Assembly: GCF_031202305.1 (NCBI RefSeq)
Contig: NZ_CP101731.1
Span: 1,922,001 to 1,986,000, forward strand
Direction: 5' to 3'
From: Pelagibacterium sp. 26DY04
Lineage (GTDB): Bacteria; Pseudomonadota; Alphaproteobacteria; Rhizobiales; Devosiaceae
Length of the DNA stretch: 64,000 nucleotides
This document shows positions 7,943-10,687 of the stretch, one piece after another. Within the stretch, counting starts at the first letter, position 1, and every line of letters starts with the position of its first letter. A program made the position numbers and the translations under genes. The notes under the pieces were generated by a model that saw nothing but the letters and a program-made list of their open reading frames with translations, was not told the DNA's origin and searched no databases.

Positions 7943-10687
7943 GTGACAGACACGCCAGAAGATGACGCGGGCGGCATGCTGCCCTCCGACATCAACCCGA
8001 TCTCGATAACCGACGAGATGCGCAAGTCCTATCTCGATTACGCCATGAGCGTGATCGTGAGCCGGGCCTTGCCCGATGTGCGCGATGGGCTGAAGCCCGT
8101 TCACCGCCGCATCCTCTTTTCGATGCATGAGCAGGGATACGAATACAACAAGCCCTACCGCAAATCGGCCCGCGTGGTCGGTGACGTGATCGGTAAGTAT
8201 CACCCGCACTCGGACGATGCGGTCTATATGTCGTTGGTTCGCATGGCGCAGGATTTCTCCATGCGCGTGCCGCTGATCGATGGACAAGGCAATTTCGGCT
8301 CCGTGGACGGCGATATGCCGGCAGCCATGCGATACACTGAAGCACGCATGGAAAAGGTCACCGGATCGCTGCTCGAGGATCTCGACAAGGATACCGTCGA
8401 TTTCCGCGACAACTATGATGCGAGCGAGAAAGAGCCGACGGTTCTGCCGGCGCGCTTTCCCAACCTGCTCGTCAATGGCGGCGGCGGCATCGCGGTGGGC
8501 ATGGCCACCAATATCCCCAGCCATAATCTGGGAGAGGTGATCGATGCGTGCCTCGCCGTGATGGACAATCCGGGCATCACGGTCGATGAGCTGATGGAAA
8601 TCATGCCTGGACCGGACTTTCCAACGGCCGGCATCATTATCGGCAAATCGGGTATTCGGTCCGCCTATGAAACGGGGCGCGGTTCGATCCTGATGCGCAG
8701 CCGTGTGACCGTCGAAGAGGTGCGCAAGGAGCGCGAGGCGCTCATCGTCCACGAGATTCCCTATCAGGTGAACAAGGCGACGATGATCGAGAAGATCGCC
8801 GAGATGGTACGCGACAAGCGCATCGAGGGCATCTCCGACATCCGCGATGAATCCGACCGGCAGGGCATGCGGGTCGTGATAGAATTGAAGCGCGACGCCG
8901 TGGCCGATGTCGTGCTCAATCAGCTTTATCGCTACTCGATGCTGCAGACCTCGTTCGGCTGCAATTTCGTGGCGCTCAATGGCGGCAAGCCCGAGATCAT
9001 GCCGCTCAAGGCGATCCTCGAGGCGTTCCTGCAGTTCCGCGAGACGGTGATCACCCGGCGTACGCGGTTCCTGCTCAACAAGGCGCGTGACCGTGCCCAC
9101 GTGTTGGTCGGCCTCCTGGTGGCGGTCAACAATGTGGACGAGGTTATCCGGCTGATCCGCTCATCGCCGGACCCCGCCACGGCGCGCGAAAAGCTGCTTG
9201 AACGCGATTGGCCGGCGGCCGATGTGATCGACCTCATCGGGTTGATCGACGATCCGCGGCACAAGGTGAACGATGACGGCACCTTCCGCCTGTCTGACGA
9301 GCAGGCCCGCGCCATTCTGGCTCTGACACTGTCTCGCCTGACCGCCCTGGGGCGGAACGAGATCGGTGACGAACTCAATACGCTCGGCGAGCAGATCAAG
9401 GACTATCTCGATATCCTGCGCTCGCGAGACCGTGTGCTGGCGATCATTCGCGACGAACTGGCGGAGGTGCGCGATCAATACGCCACGCCACGTCTGACTC
9501 AGATCGACGAATTTGCCGGTGATCTGGACGACGAGGACCTGATCGCGCGCGAAGACATGGTGGTGACGGTCAGCCATGCCGGCTACATCAAGCGTGTCCC
9601 GCTCTCGACCTATCGCGCCCAGCGAAGGGGCGGGAAAGGGCGCTCGGGTATGTCCACGAGAGACGAGGATTTCGTCTCGCGGCTGTTCGTCGCCAACACC
9701 CATACACCCGTTCTGTTCTTTTCCTCGCGCGGCATCGTCTACAAGATGAAGGTCTGGCGGCTGCCGGTGGCGGCGCCCAATGCGCGCGGCAAGGCGCTGA
9801 TCAACATGCTGCCGCTTGAAGAGGGCGAGCGCATCACCTCGATCATGCCGTTGCCCGAGGATGAATCGAGCTGGGAAAGCCTCGATGTGATGTTTGCCAC
9901 GCGTTCGGGCAATGTCCGGCGCAACAAGCTGTCGGACTTCGTGGAAGTGCGGCAGAACGGCAAGATCGCCATGAAGCTCGATGAGGGCGACGGGATCGTG
10001 GGCGTCGAGACTGCCAGCGAAAGTGACGACATCCTGATCACCACGGCCAACGGGCAGTGCATCCGGTTTGCGATCACCGATGTTCGCGTGTTCAAGGGCC
10101 GAGATTCGACGGGCGTACGCGGGATCAATCTCGCTGAAGGCGATGAAGTGATCGCCATGTCGATTCTACGGCATTTCGAAGCCTCTGCCGACGAGCGCGC
10201 TGCTTACCTCAAGATGAGCCGTGCCGTGCGCGGCGAGACCGAGGAAGCGGGCGACAGCGACGAAGAAGCAGCGGGCGATGCTCCGCTCGACCAGGATCGG
10301 TATGCCGCGATGAGCGCATCTGAGCAGTTCGTATTGACGATCTCGGAAAAGGGTTACGGCAAGCGGACCTCGTCGTTCGAGTACCGGATTACCGGGCGCG
10401 GGGGCAAAGGCATCGTTGCCATGGCGGTCAACGCCCGAAACGGCAAGTTGGTGGGCTCGTTCCCCGTTGAGGATGAAAACCAGCTCATGCTGGTGACCAA
10501 TGGCGGGCAGGTCATCCGGGTGCCGGTGGACGGGATCCGCATTGTCGGGCGTTCGAGTCAGGGCGTCACCATCTTCCGCACGGCGGCCGACGAAAGGGTC
10601 GTCTCGGTCGAGCGCATCAGCGAGCCGGAAAATGGCGACGATGAGGGGCCGGCCGAAATGTCAGAGGCGCCGGACGCCGAAGAGTAG
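7943..10687 (+). CDS. gyrA: DNA gyrase subunit A (non-canonical quinolone-binding region)
   Basis: Breaks and rejoins DNA for negative supercoiling, working as A2B2 with GyrB. It is 914 residues from a GTG start. The catalytic tyrosine is Y131 in AAMRYTE. The C-terminal beta-pinwheel carries the GyrA box QRRGGKG at about residue 558, so this is gyrase rather than ParC. The C-terminal domain has an acidic insert near 765-785 and an acidic tail. The striking point is the region after KYHPH: residues 90-96 read S-D-D-A-V-Y-M, where E. coli has G81-D82-S83-A84-V85-Y86-D87. The positions that anchor the quinolone water-metal bridge (83, 87) are Asp and Met, and Gly81 is Ser. The rest of the winged helix is normal, so the enzyme should be active. 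Confidence 0.98.
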   Translation: MTDTPEDDAGGMLPSDINPISITDEMRKSYLDYAMSVIVSRALPDVRDGLKPVHRRILFSMHEQGYEYNKPYRKSARVVGDVIGKYHPHSDDAVYMSLVRMAQDFSMRVPLIDGQGNFGSVDGDMPAAMRYTEARMEKVTGSLLEDLDKDTVDFRDNYDASEKEPTVLPARFPNLLVNGGGGIAVGMATNIPSHNLGEVIDACLAVMDNPGITVDELMEIMPGPDFPTAGIIIGKSGIRSAYETGRGSILMRSRVTVEEVRKEREALIVHEIPYQVNKATMIEKIAEMVRDKRIEGISDIRDESDRQGMRVVIELKRDAVADVVLNQLYRYSMLQTSFGCNFVALNGGKPEIMPLKAILEAFLQFRETVITRRTRFLLNKARDRAHVLVGLLVAVNNVDEVIRLIRSSPDPATAREKLLERDWPAADVIDLIGLIDDPRHKVNDDGTFRLSDEQARAILALTLSRLTALGRNEIGDELNTLGEQIKDYLDILRSRDRVLAIIRDELAEVRDQYATPRLTQIDEFAGDLDDEDLIAREDMVVTVSHAGYIKRVPLSTYRAQRRGGKGRSGMSTRDEDFVSRLFVANTHTPVLFFSSRGIVYKMKVWRLPVAAPNARGKALINMLPLEEGERITSIMPLPEDESSWESLDVMFATRSGNVRRNKLSDFVEVRQNGKIAMKLDEGDGIVGVETASESDDILITTANGQCIRFAITDVRVFKGRDSTGVRGINLAEGDEVIAMSILRHFEASADERAAYLKMSRAVRGETEEAGDSDEEAAGDAPLDQDRYAAMSASEQFVLTISEKGYGKRTSSFEYRITGRGGKGIVAMAVNARNGKLVGSFPVEDENQLMLVTNGGQVIRVPVDGIRIVGRSSQGVTIFRTAADERVVSVERISEPENGDDEGPAEMSEAPDAEE

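What the first reader, a model, noticed from the sequence alone, without database searches (positions are those of the whole stretch)
8192..8236. GyrA quinolone-contact positions are S-D-D-A-V-Y-M instead of G-D-S-A-V-Y-D
Residues 90-96 of GyrA align with E. coli 81-87. Gly81, Ser83 and Asp87 become Ser90, Asp92 and Met96, while the flanking KYHPH, VRMAQ and catalytic Y131 are intact. Ser83 and the acidic 87 position anchor the water-metal bridge that holds quinolones (established for E. coli gyrase). Losing both, plus the Gly81 change, predicts low quinolone affinity without acquired mutation. A triple change in a natural enzyme is unusual.
Basis: partly seen in the sequence, partly recalled or inferred. 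Interest (0 to 1): 0.7.

Follow-up and report, generated by a model that had tools for sequence, protein, structure and literature searches.

The report
Gyrase lacking the quinolone acid anchor
A family of soil and water bacteria carries a DNA gyrase that lost, long ago and together with a second nearby change, the acidic residue that quinolone antibiotics grip, and much the same pair of changes has arisen repeatedly in other bacteria.

Summary
GyrA (7943-10687, +) reads S-D-D-A-V-Y-M where E. coli has G81-D-S83-A-V-Y-D87; the catalytic residues checked are intact. The window is a Pelagibacterium (Devosiaceae). It is two layers, not one triple change. (1) Loss of the acid at 87 is family-wide: 133 of 133 GyrAs read have M/F/H/L/Y, against 6 acid-less of 163 outside; one loss at the family stem, no regain by parsimony. 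(2) G81S+S83D marks one Pelagibacterium clade (7 of 13 genomes). New: Met at E. coli position 116, near the catalytic Tyr, travels with the loss. In the first census M116 was in 4 of 6 acid-less and 0 of 157 acid-bearing outside genomes. Motif searches gave 19 further M116 genomes: 17 lack the acid, 2 keep it. ParC keeps its acid (21 of 21 read). Best reading: an old, recurrent, gyrase-specific rewiring of the quinolone pocket toward the eukaryotic topoisomerase II type, predicting low quinolone response. Asp83 could partly restore a bridge in this clade.

The parts
7943..10687 (+). gyrA, DNA gyrase subunit A, 914 aa (GTG start; an inner ATG start would give 903 aa)
8201..8209 (+). HPH (E. coli H78-P-H80), intact
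8210..8212 (+). Ser90 = E. coli Gly81 (TCG); S in 20 of 133 Devosiaceae, 17 of these with Asp83
8216..8218 (+). Asp92 = E. coli Ser83 (GAT); acid at 83 changed 6 times inside the family and once elsewhere by parsimony
8228..8230 (+). Met96 = E. coli Asp87 (ATG), the lost acidic bridge anchor; non-acidic in 133 of 133 Devosiaceae GyrAs read
8315..8317 (+). Met125 = E. coli Ser116 (ATG), partner change; Pro in 110 of 136 order and class genomes of the census
8333..8335 (+). Tyr131 = catalytic Tyr122, intact

Best explanation
This is the cell's normal, single-copy GyrA, with an intact cleavage centre and a rewired quinolone pocket. Shown: the acid at E. coli position 87 was lost once at the stem of Devosiaceae and not regained, mostly as Met (107 of 133), with Phe, His, Leu, Tyr in subclades. 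The loss goes with Met at E. coli position 116, six residues before the catalytic Tyr, and the same pair arose repeatedly in other alphaproteobacterial lineages, among them Brevundimonas and Zavarzinia. Inferred: without the carboxylate the drug's hydrated Mg2+ has no anchor at 87, and Met116 re-packs the same pocket, so quinolones stabilise cleavage poorly while catalysis stays normal. This resembles eukaryotic topoisomerase II, which has Met at the acid position. Inferred for the window's clade: Ser81 and Asp83 are a later local change at the start of the same helix; Asp83 may offer a second-best carboxylate, so its drug response could be intermediate. The selecting force is unknown; a natural gyrase-specific poison or an enzyme-intrinsic gain fits better than clinical quinolones, because the change is old, mostly multi-nucleotide and absent from ParC.
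For: Acid absent in 133 of 133 Devosiaceae GyrAs read, of 136 genomes, present in 157 of 163 outside genomes (49 order, 87 class, 27 phylum). A 132-member family clade with support 1.0, zero regains by parsimony. M116: 127 of 132 Devosiaceae read, the other 5 Asp/Glu; outside, 4 of 6 acid-less against 0 of 157 acid-bearing, the strongest of the columns scanned for the family's majority residue (own residues 84-101 left out; P 1.1e-6 in order+class, next 0.0033). Held-out: 17 of 19 newly found M116 genomes lack the acid, in 6 of 7 new families. In seven genera of seven families both types were read: all 21 acid-bearing members have P116 and all 10 acid-less ones M116. Met (ATG) is three and Phe (TTC/TTT) two base changes from Asp codons, unlike the common E. 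coli D87N/D87Y. The catalytic positions checked are kept. Brevundimonas brasiliensis, reported as L83/H87 relative to E. coli, was ciprofloxacin non-susceptible (PMC10269605, passages); 5 of 120 proteins of the Brevundimonas search have that L83/H87 motif. Human Top2-beta has Gln778/Met782 at the two anchor positions (PMC4686662, passages); Q83+M87 occurs in 23 of 133 Devosiaceae.
Against: No drug susceptibility data for any Devosiaceae turned up in the listings. Two M116 genomes (G978, G999, f168) keep Asp87. Acid-less GyrAs without M116 exist: G043 (S116), G251 (P116), and four f15 g437 genomes (S116) among 27 relatives lacking M116 that I read for comparison; the Brevundimonas L83/H87 proteins have T116. 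So the coupling is not obligatory. That 87 and 116 touch in space was not tested: the AlphaFold model was too poor (pLDDT 48.1). In some enzymes one of the two residues alone carries the bridge (PMC11019561 section 9), and 62 of 133 Devosiaceae have S or T at 83. B. brasiliensis also carries efflux genes, so its phenotype is not proof.
Confidence: 0.7

Rival explanations
1. Neutral drift: position 87 is non-essential, the family lost the acid by chance, and 116 varies freely.
For: A 2024 review calls the two residues highly conserved but nonessential (PMC11019561, section 9). Within the family residue 87 changed type 12 times by parsimony.
Against: Acid kept in 157 of 163 outside genomes; zero regains among 132 family members; losses favour Met or Phe, three or two base changes away, and tend to come with M116 (4 of 6 in the unbiased census).
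Confidence: 0.15
2. In the window's own clade Asp83 replaces Asp87 as the acidic anchor of the water-metal bridge, so this gyrase is about normally quinolone-sensitive.
For: 6 of 7 changes of acid status at 83 lie inside the acid-less family, which holds 17.7% of branch length (P 1.8e-4, unplanned single test). One anchor is enough in some enzymes.
Against: 109 of 133 family members have no acid at 83 either, so it is no general replacement. Of 24 acid-83 family GyrAs 17 also changed 81 and 17 have Asn instead of the acid at 82, which looks like rebuilding of the helix start. Geometry not tested.
Confidence: 0.25
3. Recent selection by synthetic quinolones produced acquired resistance in this strain.
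For: His and Tyr at 87, seen in subclades, are also reported as resistance alleles (D87H in PMC10269605; D87Y in PMC9917921).
Against: The change is shared by all 133 family GyrAs read and sits on the family stem; ParC keeps its acid in 21 of 21 read; Met is three bases from Asp.
Confidence: 0.02
4. Sequencing or assembly error.
For: None found.
Against: Same residues in 7 of 13 genus genomes, in seven loci with 17-18 silent differences per 50 codons, and in proteins P0001-P0003 and P0006-P0009.
Confidence: 0.005

Closest known systems
E. coli DNA gyrase GyrA (quinolone-sensitive type; 6rks_A)
   Same: Gap-free alignment over the QRDR, same catalytic residues, same subunit family
   Different: G81S, S83D, D87M, S116M
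Mycobacterium tuberculosis GyrA (natural Ala at the Ser83 position)
   Same: A naturally missing bridge anchor with lower drug potency (PMC11019561, section 9)
   Different: There the acid is kept and Ser is missing; here the acid is missing
Brevundimonas GyrA (f78; P0121-P0240)
   Same: M87+M116 in 108 of 120 proteins of that search; quinolone-resistant Brevundimonas are reported
   Different: Independent origin on the tree; 83 is Ala in 107 of the 120; the L83/H87 motif has T116
Human topoisomerase II alpha/beta
   Same: No acid at the 87-equivalent, Met instead; Top2-beta pair Gln778/Met782 equals the Q83/M87 of 23 Devosiaceae
   Different: Homodimeric eukaryotic enzyme; here only single positions of a true gyrase converge

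Membership tests
DNA gyrase subunit A (TIGR01063 / NF004043) | Whole-protein score above the curated cut-off | tested here: met
   1160.7 against 877 bits; 1195 against 902
DNA gyrase subunit A (TIGR01063 / NF004043) | Catalytic Arg121-Tyr122 and conserved R32, K42, H45, H78, H80 | tested here: met
   All present, and invariant in the family rows that cover them
DNA gyrase subunit A (TIGR01063 / NF004043) | Distinct ParC elsewhere in the genome | tested here: met
   Second match at C1:1643791, 49% identity, GDQSVYD
Quinolone-sensitive-type GyrA (water-metal ion bridge) | Acidic residue at E. coli 87 | tested here: not met
   Met in the window, non-acidic in 133 of 133 family members read
Quinolone-sensitive-type GyrA (water-metal ion bridge) | Ser (or Thr) at E. 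coli 83 | tested here: not met
   Asp in the window; S/T in 62 of 133 of the family and 60 of 163 outside
Quinolone-sensitive-type GyrA (water-metal ion bridge) | Quinolone-stabilised, metal-dependent DNA cleavage | not testable with these tools
   Needs enzyme assays
Paired 87/116 switch (defined in this report) | Non-acidic 87 together with Met116 | tested here: met
   Window M87+M116
Paired 87/116 switch (defined in this report) | The two side chains are in contact | not tested
   Model too poor; no coordinates read

The most novel reading that the evidence does not exclude
Alphaproteobacterial gyrases carry a hidden two-state quinolone pocket. One state is acid-87 with Pro or a small or polar residue at 116. 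The other is a hydrophobic 87 with Met116, close in kind to eukaryotic topoisomerase II. The pair switched at least ten times independently and one-way (11 losses with M116 on the same branch), and became fixed in Devosiaceae, under pressure from natural gyrase poisons rather than synthetic quinolones. Such gyrases would be intrinsically quinolone-insensitive and, in Q83/M87 members, unusually responsive to etoposide-like ligands.
Probability: 0.35. Interest if true: 0.78.

Novelty: new variant of a known kind. Interest (0 to 1): 0.6.

Why it matters
The Ser and acid that anchor quinolones are described as highly conserved yet nonessential, and why bacteria keep them is not explained in the texts I read. 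A family of more than a hundred species that does without the acid, and lineages that repeat the loss, often with the same second-site change, make that question testable with natural enzymes. It also warns that calling position-87 differences from E. coli acquired resistance mutations in Alphaproteobacteria, as was done for Brevundimonas brasiliensis, may mistake old lineage states for clinical events. And it names a residue (116), outside the two classical anchors, as a likely partner in the pocket.

Tried and rejected
AlphaFold on 22 close homologues gave pLDDT 48.1 and was discarded; no fold search was run. Literature searches on Devosia or Pelagibacterium quinolone susceptibility or gyrA and on natural variation at position 87 listed nothing on the point, judged by title and start of abstract; several lists were capped (20 of 37, 25 of 331, 15 of 19, 15 of 25, 15 of 17), and most taxonomic descriptions are in journals not held. 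Han and Andrade 2005 on B. diminuta was seen only as a citation and is not held. A Qnr-like protein was considered as a family-wide companion and rejected: 25 of 120 family genomes at E <= 1e-20. A second or acquired gyrA was rejected (ordinary housekeeping neighbours). The column scan is not used as evidence of strength, because 17 of its 27 acid-less genomes had been found through M116; one search is the unbiased scan. For the same reason '11 of 14 losses carry M116 on the same branch' is inflated as a fraction; the unbiased census gives 4 of 6.

Full report
What is there. The ORF at 7943-10687 (+) is a full-length GyrA of 914 aa. It aligns without a gap to E. coli GyrA over the quinolone region with an offset of 9, so window residues 90-96 are E. 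coli 81-87 and read S-D-D-A-V-Y-M. The genome is one contig of 3.89 Mb with one full gyrA and one parC, gyrB and parE. Neighbours are an MFS transporter on the other strand, then LysE, a cytidylyltransferase-fold protein, two cyclophilins, a queuosine-synthesis protein and TGT, with no sign of a recent arrival.

Is it real and kept? The same seven residues occur in 7 of 13 genomes of the genus. Seven S-D-D loci compared with the window differ in 17-18 of 50 surrounding codons silently and in 1-2 by residue. That is a conserved protein state, not an error.

Family census. I read GyrA residue 87 in 133 of the 136 family genomes held (two had no match at E <= 1e-160, one has a gene cut before this region). 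All 133 are non-acidic: 107 Met, 14 Phe, 8 His, 2 Leu, 2 Tyr. Outside the family I read 163 genomes: 49 of the order, 87 of the class, 27 of the phylum. 157 have Asp or Glu. The six exceptions lie in five of 128 families (f5, f8, f60, f78, f117). The outside sample was not random. The 49 order genomes are the 24 plus 25 best-scoring loci. The 87 class genomes are 27 best-scoring loci plus 60 picked by hand, one per family, from the printed rows. The 27 phylum genomes were picked by hand, one per family. Those row lists were cut, so distant genomes are under-represented.

Tree. A GyrA tree without the quinolone-region columns puts 132 family members in one clade with support 1.0. The 133rd, G035, is a short fragment and falls elsewhere (that tree was rooted on one outgroup member, the tree on all 27 phylum genomes). 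Parsimony gives one loss on the family stem and no regain. S-D-D forms one clade inside Pelagibacterium (support 0.77), nested among G-D-S-M and G-D-S-H relatives. So the 'triple change' is an old loss of the acid plus a later local pair.

Positions 81 and 83. Ser83 is not the baseline in this order: 83 is Gln in 27, Ala in 13, Ser in 4 of 49. An acid at 83 is found in 24 of 133 family members but in 1 of 163 outside. By parsimony 6 of its 7 changes lie inside the family, which has 17.7% of branch length (P 1.8e-4, an unplanned test). It goes with Ser81 (17 of 20 Ser81 GyrAs of the family) and with Asn instead of Asp at 82 (17 of 24). I read this as rebuilding of the start of the helix. Whether Asp83 can hold the drug's metal is open.

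A partner at 116. A scan for columns that separate the family from order and class genomes ranked own residue 342 first, 125 (E. coli 116) second and 96 (E. coli 87) third. At 116 the family has Met in 127 of 132 read and Asp/Glu in the other 5; Pro stands in 110 of 136 order and class genomes. Among outside genomes Met116 occurred in 4 of the 6 acid-less and 0 of the 157 acid-bearing (Fisher 5e-7). When every column outside own residues 84-101 was tested for the family's majority residue against acid loss, 116 stood far ahead (1.1e-6 in the order and class subset, next 0.0033); 342 showed no such link. I then tested this forward. A DNA pattern for GDM(A/P)A(A/S)MRYTE was searched in draws of 385 class, 397 order and 398 phylum genomes (the draws overlap). 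It hit 8, 32 and 8; the reversed control pattern shows no hit in the printed rows. Outside the family these are 23 distinct genomes, 19 of them new. Residue 87 was then read in all: 17 of the 19 new ones are non-acidic (Met, Phe, Ala), across six new families (f15, f19, f55, f107, f170, f255) and further members of f60 and f78. Two, both from f168 and both reading GDMAAAMRY, keep Asp87. So the link is strong but not absolute. With Met116-Pro117 it was 21 of 21 including the four known; with Met116-Ala117 0 of 2.

Relatives without Met116. I read 27 of them for comparison: 23 have the acid, and 4, all of f15 g437, have Phe or Met87 with Ser116. In seven other genera both types were read, and there all 21 acid-bearing members have Pro116 and all 10 acid-less ones Met116. 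The f15 case suggests that the acid can go first.

Counting events. On a tree of 339 GyrAs parsimony gives 14 losses of the acid, no regain, and 11 losses with a Met116 gain on the same branch; Met116 arose once with the acid kept. The fraction 11 of 14 is inflated, because many of these genomes were found through Met116. The unbiased census gives 4 of 6 (f1, f5, f60, f78). The reverse statement, that Met116 sits in acid-less GyrAs, does not have this bias. The codons are ATG for Met and TTC or TTT for Phe, three and two bases from an Asp codon, so these are not the usual single-base changes.

Large protein sets agree. Of 360 GyrA proteins from three searches (120 listed of 8000 scored each), 116 have an acid at 87 and none of these has Met116; of 244 acid-less ones 230 have Met116, 7 Asp/Glu, 7 Thr. 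These are close relatives of three queries, two of them chosen for the pair, and not independent. The second query's named relatives are mostly Brevundimonas, the third's include Zavarzinia aquatilis.

ParC. In the window's genome, 18 other family genomes and the two acid-less order genomes of the census, ParC keeps Asp at the 84-equivalent (21 of 21 read) and has Gln at the 80-equivalent. The change is gyrase-specific in these.

How it likely works. Shown in the literature: the quinolone's keto acid holds a Mg2+ whose waters bind Ser83 and the acid at 87; E. coli D87N gyrase is ciprofloxacin-resistant and the double mutant shows essentially no sensitivity, S83A is not resistant (PMC9917921, text parts 1 and 2 of 4; PMC11019561, section 9). 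Inferred: Devosiaceae gyrase lacks this anchor and should respond poorly to quinolones while staying open to drugs that do not use the bridge. Human topoisomerase II lacks the anchors too: both Met in Top2-alpha (PMC5745469, passages), Gln778 and Met782 in Top2-beta, where they meet the sugar of etoposide (PMC4686662, passages). Q83+M87, the Top2-beta pair, is found in 23 of 133 family members. This gives a sharp test with etoposide. Brevundimonas brasiliensis, non-susceptible to ciprofloxacin, is described with 'S83L and D87H' (PMC10269605, passages); L83/H87 is the plain sequence of 5 of 120 proteins here, so it may be a lineage state. That species also has efflux genes.

What is not shown. 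No drug test, no 3D contact between 87 and 116, no selecting agent. That Ala119, close to 116, is a known quinolone-resistance site is recalled, not from a call. I found no paper on this in the searches named under 'tried and rejected', none of which asked about residue 116 or about Brevundimonas gyrA.

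Noticed in passing
G000:C1:2119906-2120670 (L283:1402-2175, -), outside the window: A 257-aa pentapeptide repeat protein resembling Qnr (113 bits against a cut-off of 240) beside an ORF that by eye reads like an amidase; a relative at E <= 1e-20 in 25 of 120 family genomes.
   Followed up: partly
L281 (GyrB), outside the window: GyrB keeps EGDSA and PLRGKILNVE, but the position equal to E. coli Glu466 (hand alignment, E. coli sequence and numbering recalled) reads Gln; Brevundimonas brasiliensis is reported with Leu there.
   Followed up: no
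GyrA E. coli position 99 (own 108): Arg99 is Gly in 77 of 132 family members read, and Arg in 151 of 163 outside genomes.
   Followed up: no
GyrA own positions 342, 448, 140: Three more nearly fixed family differences: Phe for Met at 342, Phe for Tyr at 448, Thr for Ala at 140.
   Followed up: no
G431 (L231), family f30: A class-level GyrA with S-T-E-A-V-Y-D: Ser81 and Glu83 with the acid at 87 kept, the only acid-83 case outside the family in the census.
   Followed up: no
G089, G086, G077, G018, G029: The five family GyrAs read without Met116 have Glu or Asp there, a residue seen at 116 in none of 157 acid-87 outside genomes.
   Followed up: partly
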